Assembly: GCF_021389935.1 (NCBI RefSeq)
Contig: NZ_CP089979.1
Coordinates: 1,903,001-1,967,000, forward strand
DNA length: 64,000 nucleotides
Reading direction: 5' to 3'
Source: Fulvivirga ligni
Lineage (GTDB): Bacteria > Bacteroidota > Bacteroidia > Cytophagales > Cyclobacteriaceae
Under the pieces are notes generated by a model. That model saw only the letters and a list, made by a program, of their open reading frames with translations. It was not told where the DNA came from and made no database searches. This document shows, piece by piece, positions 36,334-43,546 of this stretch. A program made the translations under genes and the position numbers. Numbering within the stretch: position 1 is the stretch's first letter; each line of letters opens with the position of its first letter.

Positions 36334-36738
36334 CTAGTTATAAGCTACCTCTTTGCTCTTTAGCCATTGTTCCGCATCATATACTGAATGAAACGTGGTA
36401 ACAACGTCTGAATCTGGCTTGGCCTTTTGCGCAGATAGTTCTGCGAAAATGTTAGGAGAAAACACCCATGCAAAGTGCTTTAATCCTGCACTCTCCATTC
36501 TGGGAAACCAATTTTTAGCAGTCCACTCGGCTGCGTCTTGCCATGGGCCTGATACGCTGGTGTTGTCATTAAGGACTTTAGCGCACCGTTTACTCTTCAG
36601 TAGCTCGAGGATTTTCTCCCCGCTGTTCATGATTTTTTCCTTGTTTTGAAAGCCAAGCCATACACAATAGAGTATTTGTTCATCCTTGTCGTAGCTTACT
36701 TCCAAATTTGATTGTTTTAATAAAATTTCCCTATCCAT
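36334..36738 (-). CDS. STAS/SpoIIAA-like small protein
   Basis: 134 residues from the ATG at 36738 (a TTG three codons earlier is less likely). No signal or membrane helix. Pattern of alternating strands and helices, with VLNDNTSVSGPWQDAAEW in the middle and FHSVYDAEQWLKSKE at the end, resembles the SpoIIAA-like/STAS family seen in Bacteroidota, whose members are thought to act in protein-protein regulation. No Ser phospho-site can be assigned with confidence. It lies between the polyketide locus and uvrB, with its own terminator, so a link to the polyketide synthase is unproven. Confidence 0.68.
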   Translation of the reverse strand: MDREILLKQSNLEVSYDKDEQILYCVWLGFQNKEKIMNSGEKILELLKSKRCAKVLNDNTSVSGPWQDAAEWTAKNWFPRMESAGLKHFAWVFSPNIFAELSAQKAKPDSDVVTTFHSVYDAEQWLKSKEVAYN

Positions 36739-36983
36739 TTCCTTCAAGTTTTAAACATTATTAGAATTACTAAGATTGAAATTTTTCATATGAAAAAAGA
36801 ATCAATTTTTGGTATTAAACCATCTCTATAAAAAAATAATAAAATTTCTTCGATCTGTCGTTATAAACATCTTGTTAATGTCTTTTAACTGGTTGCAACG
36901 CTTTAAATGTTGTAATTGATATAATTTTTATTGATTTATTTCACTGAGCTTTTAAAAACTTAGCCGTTATTCTTTTATTTTGA

Positions 36984-37436
36984 TTATTCCTTACATCGCT
37001 CCCATACAACATAAAAGACAATGTCACCATTTTCTGTAGGAATAGGAGGAGTGTAGATAATGAGCTGATTGTCTTCAATTTTGGCATACCTTTTTTCAAC
37101 ATTTCCTTCCCAATTAGGAAAGAGTCCGCCTTCAACAATGTGGGTCATAGTGCCTTCATCATCTTGATAATATTTGCCGTAATAGGCAAAATAGCTTTTA
37201 AAAGCAGATTCGATCTCTTCAGGCGTACCTTCATACATTCCATCCGTTTTAAATTTGGTTCTCGAATTTTTCATGATGTGAACACTCATATAGCCCGCGT
37301 TATCATAGATTAAAATGCCTTGCGGATTACGACCAAAGTAATCTACTCTATTGCCATCTTCATCCTGATAATACCATGAAACAAGCTTCCATGTACCTAC
37401 TATCTTTTTAGTTAGATTATTTACTGTTGTTTCCAT
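36984..37436 (-). CDS. Lipocalin-like domain protein, coupled to the polyketide synthase
   Basis: 150 residues. A beta-barrel pattern with GTWKLVSWYYQDEDGNRV at the start and EDNQLIIYTPP near the end matches the lipocalin-like family that recurs in secondary-metabolite loci. No signal peptide, so cytoplasmic. Its ATG overlaps the stop of the 2036-residue polyketide synthase by one base (TAATG), making it a dedicated partner. Fungal and bacterial lipocalin-fold enzymes can fold or cyclise a nascent polyketide (for example Diels-Alderases), so a product-shaping or product-binding role is a fair inference, not shown here. Confidence 0.82.
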   Translation of the reverse strand: METTVNNLTKKIVGTWKLVSWYYQDEDGNRVDYFGRNPQGILIYDNAGYMSVHIMKNSRTKFKTDGMYEGTPEEIESAFKSYFAYYGKYYQDDEGTMTHIVEGGLFPNWEGNVEKRYAKIEDNQLIIYTPPIPTENGDIVFYVVWERCKE

Positions 37437-40400
37437 TATTTATTGATTAAAATGGTTTTGTCTATCTCTGAATTGATTAAATGAGTAATGAATTCACGGT
37501 CATTCCTTAAATAGTGATGTCCACCTTTTCGTTGAATTAATTTGAATGTAGTGGTGGTTTCATTCTTCCAATTTTCAATCTGTCCGTGTGATACGGTATT
37601 ATCATCGACACCATGTATTGCGATAATGGGCAGATCAAATGGTGGCTGAAATTCATATTTAAAGCTATCAATCAGGGCAAGGTCATTTCTAAGAAGAGTA
37701 ATCAGTACTTTTCTTAGTTCAGGATCAGGTGTGTTTTCAGGTTTCAAATGAGGGAAGGAATCCATGAGTTGCTGGTTGTCTAACCTTGGGTCCAGGTGCG
37801 CGCGCTCATAAGAGGCCAACTGTGGGGTACTGCTAATAAAGAGCTGCTGAGGCTGACGTAAATTATTTGTTCTGATGAGCCTTAATAGTTCAAAAGCAAT
37901 TAATCCACCCATGCTATGACCAAATAGGAAGTATGGTTTATCCAGATGATTTTTGAGATCTTTTAAAATTTTATTGGTAGCAAATTTTATGTCTTGAAAA
38001 GGCTTTGCCGATAGCTGTTTACCTCTACCGGGTAATTCCAATATTATAAGCTCAATATCGGCATCTAACATAGTTTCCCACATGTCATATAGAGAAGAAC
38101 TGCCACCGGCATCATGAAAACAAATCATCCTGAAACTAGCCTCTGGATTTGGTTTTGGAATGACAAGACTTTGAACAACCTTACCGTTTCTTTTGGGAGT
38201 GGTTAGTAAATCACCTTCTTCGCTATTCACCAGCCTTCCCATTAGAAATGAGGAATATTCCCCAATGGTGGGGTACTCCCAAATATTGGTCACTGATAAT
38301 TTAAGTGATAAATCTTTTTCCAGCTTGTTTCTTAACTGAACTGCCATTATAGAATCTATTCCCAGGTTTTTAAATCGCATCTCGGAGTTGAGCTTTCCTG
38401 GTGTGCTTTTGATGATTTTAGCGGTAAGTAATTTAACATGGTTTTCTAATGCCAATTGCTTCTCCTCTTTGTTCGGTAATAATTCCAACGTTTGAAGTAA
38501 ACTTTGATTCTCATTGGATTTTTCTTCTTTAAGTAAGAGGTTTCCAAAGTAGTTGCTGGCACCTAGTGAAGGGAAAAAGTCTGCTGTTTGATCAGGGCTA
38601 ATTTTGAATATCCCAATATTTACAGGTTGCTGAAAGATTATATGATCTAGTGCATCTACTGCCTCTTTCATGGTAGTAGGAATGAAACCCTCAGCTTTAG
38701 CATATTTAGCCATTTCTTCGGCATTAGCCACCATACCTGCATCTGTCATGACGCCCCAGTTTACTGCCGTGGCTGTAAGGCCCAGAGAATGACGGTACTG
38801 TGCTAGCGAATCTAAGAATGCATTAGCGGCTACATAACTACCTTGTCCGCTGAGGCCAATCATTGAGGAGGCAGATGAGAAAAGGAGAAATGTATCTAAA
38901 TCATATTCTTTGGATAAAAGGTGGAGGTTCCAGCCACCTTTTACTTTCGGTGCTAAAATATTAGAATAGTTGTCCGAAGTTAATTCATTGATTGGTGTAG
39001 CTTGTATAAGACCAGCAGCGTGAATTATTCCTTTTAAATTGATGCTAAATTCTTGATCTTCAAAAACTTGCTTCAGTCCAAAGTAATCAGAAACGTCGCA
39101 TGGTATGATTTCAAATGATGCGCCACCTTTCTGAAACTCCTGTATTTTACTGCTTGTGTATTCATCTGTATTTCCACTTCTGCTGAGTAGAATGAAATTT
39201 CTTGCCCCCTTGGCAAACATCCACTCCACCAGTCTAAATGCAATGCCGTTATAGCCAGTGACCAGGTAGCTGCCTACAGGTGAGAAAGTCTTATTTTGAA
39301 TGCCGAAAATGTCTGGTTTTACCTTGTTTAATCTGGAGACATAAACATCCTTATTTCTTATGGCAATCTCTTTTTCTTTACTTAACCTGCTTGATAGTAA
39401 TTGCGTGAAGATTTCCAATTCCGAATTATTAGGTAGATAACTCAGGTCTATTTGCAAAGTTTCATACTGAGGAAGTTCATTGGCAATAACCCTTGCTAAC
39501 CCATTTAATGGCCCATGTTCAATATTAATCATGGTGTTTTCAATAGGTTTACTTCCATTAGTTACTACGTTAAGTTTTGGATAGCGCTTCAGTTTTAATG
39601 CATTTATAGCTTGCATTACATTAACTAGATAATACGCGGAAGCGGTTTTGAGTTGAAGCTTGTCATGATGTAGCTCCTTGGTAAAGAAGAAAATGACATC
39701 GTCTTGAGAGTTTAGATTAATCTCCCTTAACGTCTGCTGTACTGACGCAAGGTCATCATAATTGGTCTTGTAGATTTTAACGTTTTCTGAATTCGGGCTC
39801 TCTAGTTTATTTATTAAAACTGATACGGTATGACCTTGCTTGCTTAGTTTGCTAACTAGCTGTTGAACAGCGATATAAGAATTGCTAATCAGAAGGTAGT
39901 TTTTCAAACCAGCAGAGGCTGATTTCTTATTAATTTCTGTTTTAAGCCACTGCACCTGATGAAACCATTCATTGTCAGCCTGATGGTAATCTGACACTGA
40001 CATAATTTTTGCTCCAACCTGTTCTACTTTTAAAAGTGGATTACCTTGTTCATCATAAATGACTAAATCTGCCAGCAAGTCAGTGAAGTGCTCATTTTCC
40101 TGTTTGGCTTTAATTTTTATATTCACCTGTAGGTCTGAGTTCTTAGGAATATTGCCGAAGACTTCCAATCTACCTACTCTGGTTAAATAGGTGGTTCGGT
40201 AATTACTATCTTCTCCATTTAACGCAGGGACAAAAAGTGCCTGAAAACAACTGTCTAATACAGCAGGATGAAAGTGATATTTGTTTATGTTCCCTGAGAT
40301 TTTGGAGTCAATCTTTACATTGGCCTTAATGTCATTTTGATCTATAGTTAGTTGTGAGATACCTTGAAAGTACGGTCCATAATTGAGCCCGATACTTTCC

Positions 40401-43400
40401 AGTTGCTTGTAGTAGTCTTCACCTGAAATGATATCTCCGGCTAGAGTTTTAAATGGACTCACATTGTAAGAATGAACTTCGTCCTTAAAGTGATATTCTC
40501 CTTCAGCGGTTAGTAGCCATTTATCCTGGTTTTGCTGATAAAATTTAAATCCAGACAGCCCATCATCTTCTTCATGTAGTTTCAATTGCACCTTTATGGA
40601 CTCATTATCTTCGAAAGTGATAGCTTTTTTGAATGATAAATTAACTATTTCACAATGTTGGGATCCTGAGAGTTCGTTTAATGCGGCCAATATCATTTCT
40701 ACATATGCAGTTCCTGGCAGTACAGTAATGTTATTTACTTGGTGATCTTTTATATAAGGAAACTGATTTAAATTAATGTGCGCTTCCCAAAAATGTATTT
40801 CAGGAAGGTTGGCCAATTTTATTTCTCTACCAATCCATGGGTGTCCAGATTTGTTTTTATCGAGAGATAGCCGTTCATTGAGCTTGTACTCTTCCCTTTG
40901 GAATGGATAGGAGGGAAGGAATGTATGGTAGGTATTAACATTTTTATAAAACTGATTCCAATTGATACTAACGCCGTTTTCATATAATGTAGATACGTTA
41001 TCATACAGTTCGCATAATTCTTCTTTGTCTCTGTGTAAGGTGCTTGTAACAACGGCTTTACAGTTGTTGGCATCCAAACATTCGTTAATAGAAGTGATTA
41101 ATACAGGGTGAGGACTTACCTCAATGAATACCTTATGTCCATCTTCGACAAGCTTATCCATTACAGCGGCAAATTGAACCCCATGCCTTAGGTTATCTAC
41201 CCAATATTCACTTGTCAAATCTTCACCTTCTACTATTTGATTTCTTACGGTAGAATAAAGAGTAATGTCTTGATGTTTGGGATTGAGTTGGAGGCTATTA
41301 CCAAGCTCTTCTTTAATTGGATCCATTTGTTTAGAATGCGATGCCACATCTACTTTTACTCTTCTGGTGAAACGCCCCTGCTTATCTAGTTCTGCAATAA
41401 TTTCTTCAATCGCTTGTTCAGCTCCCGCTAATACTGTTGATTTTGGACTATTATTTACTGCAATAGATAATTCTGGATATCTCTTAACCACCCTTTCTGC
41501 TTGCTCAAGTGTTAATTCTGTAACAGCCATGGCACCGCCTTTGCCACTCATAGTTTTCATTAACTTACTTCTGTTGCATATGATCTGGGCGGCTTCATTA
41601 ATAGAAATACTGCCTGAGATATAGGCAGCAGCTACTTCACCCATGCTATGCCCGACTACGGAGTCTGGTTTTAAACCGATTGACATCCATAATTTTCCTA
41701 GTGCAATTTGAACTGCGGAAAGCATAGGTTGTATCACATCAATCTCATCAAGCCTGGATTCTCCTTCTGCTGCATGAAGTTGATCTATCAGAGACCAGTC
41801 TGTATACTTATTCCATTCTTTATCGCAAGCAATAATGGTTTCTTTAAAAACGGGCTCGTATTGAAATAGAGCTTTACCCATTCCTATCCATTGAGAGCCT
41901 TGTCCGGGAAAGATAAAAACAACTTTATCATTGACGGCATGTAGAGGCGTAGAAGCAGTCCATTCTTTGTGATCGCTGAGAAAGGAGCTTATTGACTCTA
42001 TCATATTCTCCTTGCTATTGGCTTTGAAAAGTTTTCTGAACTCAAATGATGATTTCGTAGTTGCGGCCAGTTTACAGGCATTTTCAAACTGATGTGCTAC
42101 TCCGTTAATTTGAGTACGATAGTAATGGAGATAATTATATATTGATTGAAACAAAGCCCCTTCAGATTTGGCAGATAACGGTAATAAGTAGCAGCCGTGC
42201 TGATGATCTCCAATATTAACATTGCATTCTTTTGGTACGTACTCTTCGAGAATGGTGTGAGCATTTGTTCCTCCCCAGCCGAAAGAATTCACGCCAGCTC
42301 GTAGGGGTTCACCGGGCTTGGCAGGCCAATCACTGAGTGAATCCTGCACTTTTAATTTTAAATTTTCAAAGTCGATGTCAGGGTTGGGTGTTTTAAAGTG
42401 CAAGTTTTTAGGCAGCTTTCTTTTATTCATGGCTAGCACCACTTTAATAAGCCCTGCAATGCCAGCTGCCCCTTCCAAATGACCTATATTTGTTTTGACC
42501 GAACCCACATGCAGCGGCCTGGTCCGGTTAGTGCTGAAGAACTGACCTAGTGCTCTACTTTCTGTAGGATCACCCAGTTTAGTGCCGGTGCCATGGGCTT
42601 CCACATAATGTACGTCAGCTGGTGCAATGTCAGACCTTTCATAAGCAGATTGTAAAACGTCCAATTGTCCATTAGTACTGGTGGCAGGTAGGTTTACATT
42701 GAAGCCATTGTTATTCATGGCACTACCTTTAATAAGTGCGAAGATTTTATCTCCATCTCTTTCAGCGTCTTCTAAGCGCTTTAGAAGAATTATACCACCA
42801 CCTTCACCACGCACAAAACCATCAGCAGCTATATCAAAAGTACTACAGCTACCCTTAGCGGAAAGTCCTCCAAATTTGGAGAGCAATATGTTTTGATCCG
42901 GATCAAGTGTGTGATTTACGCCACCTACCAGACCGTAGCTGGTGCTTCCGTCCCAGAGACTTTGGCAGGCTAAATGAAGTGCCACTAAAGAAGAGGAGCA
43001 ACCTGTATCTACCACTAAACTAGGGCCGGAAAAGCCATAGAAGTAAGAGATGCGATTGGCTATAATATTAGCCGACTGCCCCATGGCGGAATGAGAAGTG
43101 ACTACTGCATTCTTATGTTTCCTCAGGTGCTCAAAATCACTCCATATATTGCCTACATAAACACCCACTTTTTTACCAGCTATCTGCTGATATGGAATGT
43201 TGCCACTTTCGAGACATTCCCAGGTGAGTTCCATCATAAGCTTTTGTGATGGAGTCATTTCAGCGGCTTCTGCAGGAGATATATTAAAGAAGAAAGGGTC
43301 AAATTTGTCAATGTTATCAAGCATGGCTGCATGTCGCTGATGAGTTTTGTCGGCCGCACTTTTATCGGCATCGTAATATTCATCGATGTCCCATCTGCTG

Positions 43401-43546
43401 GCAGGAATTTTCTCAACGGCATCAATACCGTTCTCCAACATTTTCCAGAATTCCTGTAAATTTTCAGCCTTAGGGAAACGACATGAAAGTCCAACTATAG
43501 CAATAGGGTTGATTTTGTTTTCAGCATTCTTATTAGTTTCTAACAT
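37436..43546 (-). CDS. Type I polyketide synthase, KS-AT-DH-KR-ACP-TE
   Basis: 2036 residues, one partially reducing module. KS (~10-440) has Cys183 in DTGCSSSLVA (usually DTACSSS), EAHGTGT and NIGHLEGAAG. AT (~545-850) has Ser634 in GHSMGE and VASHS where extender specificity is read; the loading unit cannot be assigned. DH (~915-1190) has His935 in DHQVNNITVLPG, with Asn for the usual Gly, and Asp1098 (HPAVLDSCFQ). KR (~1220-1650) keeps Ser1558 and Tyr1571 but its nucleotide loop is TGYNGIAF (1430-1437). No enoylreductase or methyltransferase. ACP Ser1732 (GIDSI); C-terminal thioesterase with Ser1878 (GHSMGG) and GGHHYL. The domain order and lone module suggest iterative use. Product unknown. 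Confidence 0.95.
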   Translation of the reverse strand: MLETNKNAENKINPIAIVGLSCRFPKAENLQEFWKMLENGIDAVEKIPASRWDIDEYYDADKSAADKTHQRHAAMLDNIDKFDPFFFNISPAEAAEMTPSQKLMMELTWECLESGNIPYQQIAGKKVGVYVGNIWSDFEHLRKHKNAVVTSHSAMGQSANIIANRISYFYGFSGPSLVVDTGCSSSLVALHLACQSLWDGSTSYGLVGGVNHTLDPDQNILLSKFGGLSAKGSCSTFDIAADGFVRGEGGGIILLKRLEDAERDGDKIFALIKGSAMNNNGFNVNLPATSTNGQLDVLQSAYERSDIAPADVHYVEAHGTGTKLGDPTESRALGQFFSTNRTRPLHVGSVKTNIGHLEGAAGIAGLIKVVLAMNKRKLPKNLHFKTPNPDIDFENLKLKVQDSLSDWPAKPGEPLRAGVNSFGWGGTNAHTILEEYVPKECNVNIGDHQHGCYLLPLSAKSEGALFQSIYNYLHYYRTQINGVAHQFENACKLAATTKSSFEFRKLFKANSKENMIESISSFLSDHKEWTASTPLHAVNDKVVFIFPGQGSQWIGMGKALFQYEPVFKETIIACDKEWNKYTDWSLIDQLHAAEGESRLDEIDVIQPMLSAVQIALGKLWMSIGLKPDSVVGHSMGEVAAAYISGSISINEAAQIICNRSKLMKTMSGKGGAMAVTELTLEQAERVVKRYPELSIAVNNSPKSTVLAGAEQAIEEIIAELDKQGRFTRRVKVDVASHSKQMDPIKEELGNSLQLNPKHQDITLYSTVRNQIVEGEDLTSEYWVDNLRHGVQFAAVMDKLVEDGHKVFIEVSPHPVLITSINECLDANNCKAVVTSTLHRDKEELCELYDNVSTLYENGVSINWNQFYKNVNTYHTFLPSYPFQREEYKLNERLSLDKNKSGHPWIGREIKLANLPEIHFWEAHINLNQFPYIKDHQVNNITVLPGTAYVEMILAALNELSGSQHCEIVNLSFKKAITFEDNESIKVQLKLHEEDDGLSGFKFYQQNQDKWLLTAEGEYHFKDEVHSYNVSPFKTLAGDIISGEDYYKQLESIGLNYGPYFQGISQLTIDQNDIKANVKIDSKISGNINKYHFHPAVLDSCFQALFVPALNGEDSNYRTTYLTRVGRLEVFGNIPKNSDLQVNIKIKAKQENEHFTDLLADLVIYDEQGNPLLKVEQVGAKIMSVSDYHQADNEWFHQVQWLKTEINKKSASAGLKNYLLISNSYIAVQQLVSKLSKQGHTVSVLINKLESPNSENVKIYKTNYDDLASVQQTLREINLNSQDDVIFFFTKELHHDKLQLKTASAYYLVNVMQAINALKLKRYPKLNVVTNGSKPIENTMINIEHGPLNGLARVIANELPQYETLQIDLSYLPNNSELEIFTQLLSSRLSKEKEIAIRNKDVYVSRLNKVKPDIFGIQNKTFSPVGSYLVTGYNGIAFRLVEWMFAKGARNFILLSRSGNTDEYTSSKIQEFQKGGASFEIIPCDVSDYFGLKQVFEDQEFSINLKGIIHAAGLIQATPINELTSDNYSNILAPKVKGGWNLHLLSKEYDLDTFLLFSSASSMIGLSGQGSYVAANAFLDSLAQYRHSLGLTATAVNWGVMTDAGMVANAEEMAKYAKAEGFIPTTMKEAVDALDHIIFQQPVNIGIFKISPDQTADFFPSLGASNYFGNLLLKEEKSNENQSLLQTLELLPNKEEKQLALENHVKLLTAKIIKSTPGKLNSEMRFKNLGIDSIMAVQLRNKLEKDLSLKLSVTNIWEYPTIGEYSSFLMGRLVNSEEGDLLTTPKRNGKVVQSLVIPKPNPEASFRMICFHDAGGSSSLYDMWETMLDADIELIILELPGRGKQLSAKPFQDIKFATNKILKDLKNHLDKPYFLFGHSMGGLIAFELLRLIRTNNLRQPQQLFISSTPQLASYERAHLDPRLDNQQLMDSFPHLKPENTPDPELRKVLITLLRNDLALIDSFKYEFQPPFDLPIIAIHGVDDNTVSHGQIENWKNETTTTFKLIQRKGGHHYLRNDREFITHLINSEIDKTILINK

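What the first reader, a model, noticed from the sequence alone, without database searches (positions are those of the whole stretch)
36984..43546. Stand-alone type I polyketide synthase translationally coupled to a lipocalin-like protein
One 2036-residue module (KS-AT-DH-KR-ACP-TE) is joined by a 1-nt TAATG overlap to a lipocalin-like barrel protein, with no other biosynthetic gene adjacent, no enoylreductase and no phosphopantetheinyl transferase in the window. The fused thioesterase suggests that the synthase releases its own product, so the coupled lipocalin may fold, cyclise or bind it, as lipocalin-fold Diels-Alderases do elsewhere. The lone-module layout suggests iterative use, resembling partially reducing iterative synthases with an added thioesterase. 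I know no described product for this arrangement in Bacteroidota.
Basis: partly seen in the sequence, partly recalled or inferred. Interest (0 to 1): 0.75.

Follow-up and report, generated by a model that had tools for sequence, protein, structure and literature searches.

The report
Orphan polyketide synthase with lipocalin partner
A marine bacterium carries a compact one-protein polyketide factory that travels with a small barrel-shaped binding protein across a group of related bacteria, even where the factory has lost its chemical-reduction parts, which suggests an undescribed natural product pathway.

Summary
Window 37436-43546(-) encodes a 2036-aa KS-AT-DH-KR-ACP-TE synthase, joined by TAATG to a Lipocalin_5 protein (PF13924) at 36984-37436(-). 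The genus is Fulvivirga. The pair is not a chance neighbourhood: in 27 of 27 loci found with a close lipocalin (44-100% identical; Fulvivirga, Chryseolinea, Ohtaekwangia, Chitinophaga and others) the synthase lies next upstream on the same strand. These 27 lipocalins form one clade (98/94). Among 57 more distant ones no synthase was found adjacent, though 3 have under 500 bases upstream to judge by. In 8 of 26 synthases DH and KR are mutated or deleted (three changes on the tree, two forced), while KS, AT, ACP, TE and lipocalin remain. The lipocalin thus serves the KS-AT-ACP-TE core and not a polyene, so the Diels-Alderase analogy is weak. Best model: an iterative, partly or non-reducing synthase releases a short polyketide that the lipocalin binds or helps to cyclise. 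The product is unknown; the papers searched describe no such pairing. A new variant of a known kind.

The parts
37436..43546 (-). 2036-aa type I polyketide synthase, KS-AT-DH-KR-ACP-TE
42395..43510 (-). ketosynthase domain (residues 13-384), Cys-His-His present
41018..41920 (-). acyltransferase domain (residues 543-843), GHSMGE and VASH motifs
40016..40843 (-). dehydratase domain (residues 902-1177), His and Asp present
38744..39274 (-). ketoreductase domain (residues 1425-1601), tetrad present, short nucleotide loop TGYNGIAF at about 39236-39262
38246..38422 (-). acyl carrier domain (residues 1709-1767), GIDS
37490..38131 (-). thioesterase domain (residues 1806-2019), nearest solved sequences are free-standing thioesterases (3qmw, RifR 3fla)
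36984..37436 (-). Lipocalin_5 protein, 150 aa, start overlaps the synthase stop by 1 nt (TAATG); no obvious signal peptide (by eye, no tool run)
36334..36747 (-). SpoIIAA/STAS-fold protein of 137 aa (probable ATG start at 36738, 134 aa); conserved third gene, no Pfam match

Best explanation
A conserved biosynthetic module, found so far in Bacteroidota (mostly Cytophagales, plus a Chitinophaga isolate): an iterative type I synthase whose constant core is KS-AT-ACP-TE, plus a cytosolic Lipocalin_5 protein encoded directly behind it. Proposed mechanism: a PPTase (adjacent in many relatives, elsewhere in this genome) loads the ACP. The single KS-AT-ACP builds a short chain from malonyl-type units in repeated rounds. 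In the window type, KR and DH partly reduce it. The fused RifR-like TE releases it. The lipocalin takes up the released or nearly released polyketide in its barrel and protects it or guides its ring closure (for example to a pyrone or small aromatic ring). The SpoIIAA-fold protein is an accessory partner, perhaps regulatory. Shown: the domains and catalytic residues, the conserved linkage, common descent of the linked lipocalins, and DH/KR inactive or missing in 8 of 26 with the core kept. Inferred: iteration, chain length, substrate, localisation, the lipocalin's action, the direction of the DH/KR changes (loss) and the product.
For: Linkage: 27 of 27 loci with a close lipocalin (44-100% identical) have the synthase, or in L064 its end, next upstream on the same strand. 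Of 57 more distant lipocalins none has a synthase adjacent in the DNA held; 47 of 57 have at least 5 kb upstream, 7 under 1.5 kb and 3 of these under 0.5 kb. Reverse test among 58 relatives: 14 hold a KS at least 64% identical; 13 of these have the lipocalin, and in the 14th (G017) the contig ends inside the TE, so it cannot be tested. Of 15 Fulvivirga genomes 11 have both, 4 neither. Linked lipocalins are one clade, 98/94. The set lies in different surroundings in G014, G002, G008 and G027. Core residues are kept in 26 of 26 aligned synthases; DH/KR are inactive or absent in 8 of 26, three changes on the KS-AT tree, at least 2 forced by well-supported branches. TE nearest to RifR-like enzymes. 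Adjacent PPTase in 13 of 27; 10 of the 13 checked by Pfam, 10 of 10 match PF01648.
Against: No product, expression or biochemistry is available. Iteration is not shown; one condensation on a supplied acyl chain is possible. I found no assigned function for Lipocalin_5, and no solved relative by sequence. The short KR loop could mean weak or no reduction even in the window. Tight coupling is not universal: 18 of 27 gaps are 28 nt or less, and one is about 390 nt (with L060). The SpoIIAA-like proteins beside the synthases are not shown to be one clade (their label needs 4 changes), those of L058-L061 and L065 are only 37-38% identical, and L051 lacks the gene. Several of the 27 loci are near copies (L059/L061; L063/L064 from one MAG), so independent cases are fewer. 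The named scan used two peptide patterns taken from linked lipocalins, so it may favour the linked kind. The agreement of synthase and lipocalin distances (r 0.87) is also what plain vertical descent would give. MIBiG could not be searched.
Confidence: 0.5

Rival explanations
1. A single-round synthase: it takes an acyl chain from fatty acid metabolism, adds one unit (as Pks13 does for mycolic acids; recalled), optionally reduces it, and the TE frees a beta-keto, hydroxy or enoyl acid. The lipocalin is a fatty acid carrier.
For: No loading or cyclase domain; the L051 form is just KS-AT-ACP-TE. NCBIfam Pks13 and Pks2 models match strongly, though below their cut-offs. The TE type and the barrel would suit a lipid substrate.
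Against: In the shared-neighbour survey the groups found in at least 8 of 27 loci were the synthase, lipocalin, SpoIIAA-like protein, PPTase and one of histidine kinases (4 of its 9 ORFs checked); no acyl-AMP ligase or lipid gene among them. Pfam shows one carrier domain only, where Pks13 has a second N-terminal one (recalled).
Confidence: 0.25
2. The synthase makes one building block for a pathway encoded elsewhere, so the locus is only part of a dispersed cluster.
For: The genome has another PKS/NRPS region at C1:2500801 onwards; no transporter or tailoring gene is widely shared here (a TonB receptor group is in 5 of 27).
Against: The module persists across genera and in different surroundings; the fused TE suggests release of a free product.
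Confidence: 0.15
3. The lipocalin is a Diels-Alderase acting on a polyene, as fungal CghA, Fsa2 and Phm7 do.
For: Same broad fold class; some fungal lipocalin-type proteins catalyse such cycloadditions (PMC9055775, passages read).
Against: 8 of 26 synthases lack working DH/KR, and all 8 keep the lipocalin. No fungal Diels-Alderase among the 50 fold matches shown and none by sequence profile. It is a single 150-aa protein. Lower-ranked fold matches were not seen.
Confidence: 0.06
4. The lipocalin is an unrelated neighbour kept by chance or by operon structure.
For: Short overlaps are common in bacteria (recalled); the gap is wide in some loci.
Against: 27 of 27 linkage, joint absence in 4 of 4 Fulvivirga genomes without the synthase, one clade, different surroundings.
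Confidence: 0.03

Closest known systems
Bacterial iterative aromatic type I PKS (6-MSA/orsellinate type, e.g. ChlB1, AviM; recalled)
   Same: One module of KS-AT-DH-KR-ACP, with relatives lacking KR function
   Different: Those have no fused TE, by recall; here a TE and a lipocalin are constant. KS clade not tested against them.
Polycyclic tetramate macrolactam synthase (KS-AT-DH-KR-ACP-C-A-PCP-TE; passages of PMC10308959)
   Same: Same PKS half, single module, iterative
   Different: No C-A-PCP here
NCBIfam NF045894 PKS_plus_SDR, the best-scoring NCBIfam model
   Same: KS-AT region aligns over residues 13-892
   Different: 1225 of the 1740 bits required
Pks13-type condensing synthase
   Same: KS-AT-ACP-TE core, one module
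   Different: 774 of the 2100 bits required; has DH-KR and a lipocalin partner
Fungal lipocalin-type Diels-Alderases (CghA, Fsa2, Phm7)
   Same: Lipocalin-type protein in a polyketide pathway
   Different: Small single Lipocalin_5 protein, linked also to non-reducing synthases
Lipocalin_5 (PF13924) proteins of other bacteria
   Same: Same Pfam family; G14, W16 and R59 in all 84 aligned, R116 in all linked and 98% of unlinked
   Different: 57 sampled relatives show no adjacent PKS; the linked clade has residues rare elsewhere (T15, W21, F34, L42, G103, F106, T129, P130, F141)
SpoIIAA-like proteins of the DUF3478 type (2q3l)
   Same: Predicted fold of the third gene
   Different: No Pfam match; fold E-value only 1e-3

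Membership tests
Type I cis-AT polyketide synthase | KS, AT and ACP in one protein with catalytic residues | tested here: met
Iterative type I PKS | one module used for several rounds | not testable with these tools
   single module only; no assay, no KS reference set
Polycyclic tetramate macrolactam synthase | C-A-PCP after the PKS module | tested here: not met
Enediyne PKS | KS-AT-ACP-KR-DH order (recalled) | tested here: not met
Bacterial iterative aromatic PKS | KS groups with aromatic iterative KS domains | not tested
   no reference set at hand
Mycolic Pks13 | NCBIfam NF040607 cut-off 2100 bits | tested here: not met
   774 bits
Lipocalin_5 (PF13924) | score over Pfam cut-off 25 | tested here: met
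   119.6 bits
Fungal lipocalin-type Diels-Alderase | sequence or fold match to CghA/Fsa2/Phm7 | tested here: inconclusive
   none among the 50 fold matches shown of 1179 and none by sequence profile; lower-ranked fold matches not seen
Fungal lipocalin-type Diels-Alderase | catalyses [4+2] addition | not testable with these tools
   needs assay
Type II thioesterase (RifR type) | nearest solved sequences are free-standing thioesterases such as RifR; Ser, Asp, His present | tested here: met
   that 3qmw is RedJ and that these are type II is recalled
Type II thioesterase (RifR type) | free-standing protein | tested here: not met
   fused to the synthase
SpoIIAA-like (STAS) fold | fold match | tested here: inconclusive
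   10 of the top 12 matches bear SpoIIAA-like or anti-sigma antagonist titles, best E 1e-3; no Pfam match

The most novel reading that the evidence does not exclude
A bacterial lipocalin acts as the standing off-loading and folding partner of a TE-fused iterative PKS: it receives reactive unreduced or partly reduced chains and sets their cyclisation. The reductive domains drop out again and again by lineage to give different products from one conserved core. That would be a first catalytic or chaperone role for Lipocalin_5 as far as my searches show, in a product class not described for Bacteroidota in the papers I searched.
Probability: 0.25. Interest if true: 0.75.

Novelty: new variant of a known kind. 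Interest (0 to 1): 0.52.

Why it matters
It gives a compact orphan pathway (synthase, lipocalin, SpoIIAA-fold protein, in many relatives a PPTase) in culturable bacteria that can be expressed whole, and it offers a natural series of reducing and non-reducing versions of one synthase. That makes two questions testable: what Lipocalin_5 proteins do, and how a polyketide synthase keeps its release partner while losing its reductive loop. The 2025 antiSMASH survey of F. kasyanovii 48LL lists one type I PKS cluster among those away from its large NRPS/PKS island. It found close MIBiG homologues only for its arylpolyene and siderophore clusters (PMC12565237, passages read). Strain JCM 16186 of that species carries this module (L067), so that cluster may be this one (inference).

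Tried and rejected
Diels-Alderase role: rejected as the family-wide role because DH/KR-less members keep the lipocalin. Chance adjacency: rejected. Part of a known cluster: papers searched by terms (listings only, except PMC12565237, PMC10308959, PMC9860996 and PMC9055775, of which I read found passages); none that I saw described this pairing. MIBiG is not on hand. Plasmid search for the lipocalin: 95 records, all under 60% identity; neighbours not examined. Class-level sample of 395 genomes: KS at E<=1e-140 only in the window's genome (1 of 395); lipocalin at E<=1e-15 in 5 of 395, the other four 31-38% identical, neighbours not examined. Promoter/terminator scan: no clear excess over shuffles (28 against a mean of 24.8; 4 against 5.3). 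PPTase remnant in the window and 12 of the 13 other PPTase-less loci, L064 left out: one match at E 0.01 in the window, about 27 kb away, taken as chance. C. vietnamensis L051 has an acetolactate decarboxylase and a short-chain dehydrogenase upstream; in no widely shared group, so not used.

Rows dropped: L064 was left out of the synthase alignment and tree because its contig starts inside the gene (26 of 27 used). SpoIIAA-like fragments under 90 aa (L053) were left out of its tree. L060 escaped the start-codon script; its gap was taken. The shared-neighbour survey counted ORF hits, so its totals (24 lipocalin, 22 SpoIIAA-like) are lower than those of tblastn, which I use. Only its 25 largest groups were printed.
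Full report
WHAT IS THERE. On the minus strand, 37436-43546 encodes a 2036-aa protein and 36984-37436 a 150-aa protein; the stop and start overlap by one base. Pfam reads the large protein as KS-AT-DH-KR-ACP-TE and the small one as Lipocalin_5, PF13924. The expected catalytic residues are present. One oddity is the KR nucleotide loop: TG-YNGIAF where a KR of the genome's other PKS has TGGTNGLGL, one residue shorter with the last glycine replaced. The thioesterase is closest by sequence to free-standing thioesterases (3qmw/3qmv, RedJ by recall, and RifR 3fla). The window lies at C1:1903001-1967000 of a 6.52-Mb one-contig genome. Genus-mates of the window's genome have the same contigs, by length, as named Fulvivirga records. 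Neighbours are uvrB, a Trypsin_2/PDZ protease and an aldehyde dehydrogenase on one side and, on the other, a protein matching only the shikimate dehydrogenase N-domain, a translocase, ComA, a TPR protein and polysaccharide genes. The genome has two other type I PKS KS domains in another region, and two PPTase-family genes, both outside the window.

DOES THE PAIR TRAVEL? Among 58 relatives (window's genome included) the lipocalin was found in 14. The 13 strong matches (44-100% identity) all have the ACP-TE end of the synthase directly upstream; the two weak matches (37% and 26%) do not. In the reverse direction, 14 of 58 genomes hold a KS at least 64% identical: 13 have the lipocalin, and in the 14th the contig ends inside the TE. 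Of 15 Fulvivirga genomes, 11 have both and 4 neither. A scan of the named species genomes with the lipocalin alignment, by two peptide patterns, kept 80 loci (of 101 confirmed). 23 of 80 (45-69% identity, all Bacteroidota) have the synthase upstream on the same strand; in 57 of 80 (41% or less) none is adjacent in the DNA held. Of those 57, 47 have at least 5 kb upstream, 7 under 1.5 kb and 3 of these under 0.5 kb, and one (L068) has KS/AT matches about 5 kb away on the other strand. Adding the window and three unnamed relatives gives 27 loci, 27 of 27 linked. Some are near copies (L059/L061) or from one MAG (L063/L064). The gap is 28 nt or less in 18 of 27 and about 390 nt in L066; the exact TAATG is seen in the window and L032. 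The 27 linked lipocalins form one clade, 98/94. Their distances follow those of the KS-AT region (26 loci, r 0.87, 0 of 2000 permutations as high), as plain vertical descent would also give. In G014, G002, G008 and G027 the set lies in other surroundings, so synteny of the Fulvivirga chromosome does not explain it.

MISSED PARTNERS. The protein at window 36334-36747 has a homologue beside 24 of the 27 loci. It lies downstream on the same strand in 17, downstream on the other strand in 5 (L058-L061, L065; only 37-38% identical) and upstream on the other strand in 2 (L050, L054). Two loci cannot be tested because the contig ends (L049, L067), and L051 lacks it. It has no Pfam match, and its predicted structure (pLDDT 92) best resembles SpoIIAA-like proteins (2q3l, E 1e-3). 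The genomes hold several paralogues, and the tree does not show that the linked ones are a clade. Fulvivirga G012 has a copy (49% identical) at the matching site without synthase or lipocalin. A PPTase gene lies beside 13 of 27 loci: divergent upstream of the synthase in 8, and downstream in 5 (10 of 13 checked, all PF01648). The window and its nearest kin (L032, L046) lack it.

REDUCTION IS LOST, THE CORE STAYS. In 26 aligned synthases (L064 left out as truncated) the KS, AT, ACP and TE residues named above are kept in all. In L055 and L062 DH and KR residues are mutated. In L058-L061 and L065 KR is gone and the DH dyad is broken (L058 keeps His but not Asp; the other four lack both). In L051 both domains are gone, leaving KS-AT-ACP-TE, 1260 aa. 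On a KS-AT tree these 8 need three changes, and well-supported branches force at least two. The place of L051 is weakly supported, and reading the changes as losses is an inference. All 8 keep the lipocalin. Whatever the lipocalin does cannot, across the family, depend on a diene or on reduced carbons. That argues against the Diels-Alderase idea and for a role tied to chain release.

MECHANISM. I think the single module works iteratively on malonyl-type units (inferred from the lone module without a loading domain; the AT motif VASH does not settle the unit). The window form partly reduces the chain, the RifR-like TE releases it, and the lipocalin binds or cyclises it in the cytosol (no signal peptide by eye, unlike the long N-termini of the unlinked L044 and L045). 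The AlphaFold2 model of the lipocalin (pLDDT 84) matches lipocalins only weakly (nitrophorin 4, E 5.9e-4). Linked lipocalins share residues rare in unlinked ones (T15, W21, F34, L42, G103, F106, T129, P130, F141), which may line the pocket (inference). The main rival is a one-step Pks13-like condensation on a fatty acyl chain.

KNOWN OR NEW. Single-module iterative PKSs are known, and a monomodular KS clade without MIBiG members has been reported from metagenomes, classed there as tetramate-macrolactam-like (PMC10308959, passages). F. kasyanovii 48LL was reported to carry one type I PKS cluster among those away from its NRPS/PKS island; only its arylpolyene and siderophore clusters had close MIBiG homologues (PMC12565237, passages). 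No paper that I saw in my searches describes a PKS with a Lipocalin_5 partner in Bacteroidota; most subscription papers and MIBiG were not available. I rate it a new variant of a known kind.

Noticed in passing
window 36334-36747: SpoIIAA-fold protein without a Pfam match, third gene of the module; many genomes of the order hold several paralogues (31 of 58 genomes have a match).
   Followed up: partly
L049 2176-2796, L050 1879-2520, L059 10185-10820 and ten others: PPTase gene beside the synthase in 13 of 27 loci, divergent upstream or downstream; absent in the window.
   Followed up: yes
L127 9302-9757 (G012): A Fulvivirga that lacks synthase and lipocalin but has a SpoIIAA-like gene at the matching site, like a scar of loss.
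   Followed up: partly
L051 3269-4834: In Chitinophaga vietnamensis an acetolactate decarboxylase and a short-chain dehydrogenase lie just upstream of the minimal KS-AT-ACP-TE synthase.
   Followed up: no
window 39236-39262: KR nucleotide loop TGYNGIAF, one residue short against one other KR; a TGxxG-type loop is shared by all 18 reducing-type members.
   Followed up: partly
L131 and L132 (G000:C1:2495000-2530000): A larger PKS/NRPS region elsewhere in the window's genome.
   Followed up: no
G000:C1:1555847-1562839: Four KS-family matches close together, resembling an aryl polyene/flexirubin locus (naming recalled).
   Followed up: no
L053 9761-10164: SpoIIAA-like gene split in two reading frames (gene decay or sequencing error).
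   Followed up: no
L061: A MAG titled uncultured Bacteroides carries a module nearly identical to that of Ohtaekwangia koreensis; the title is probably wrong.
   Followed up: no
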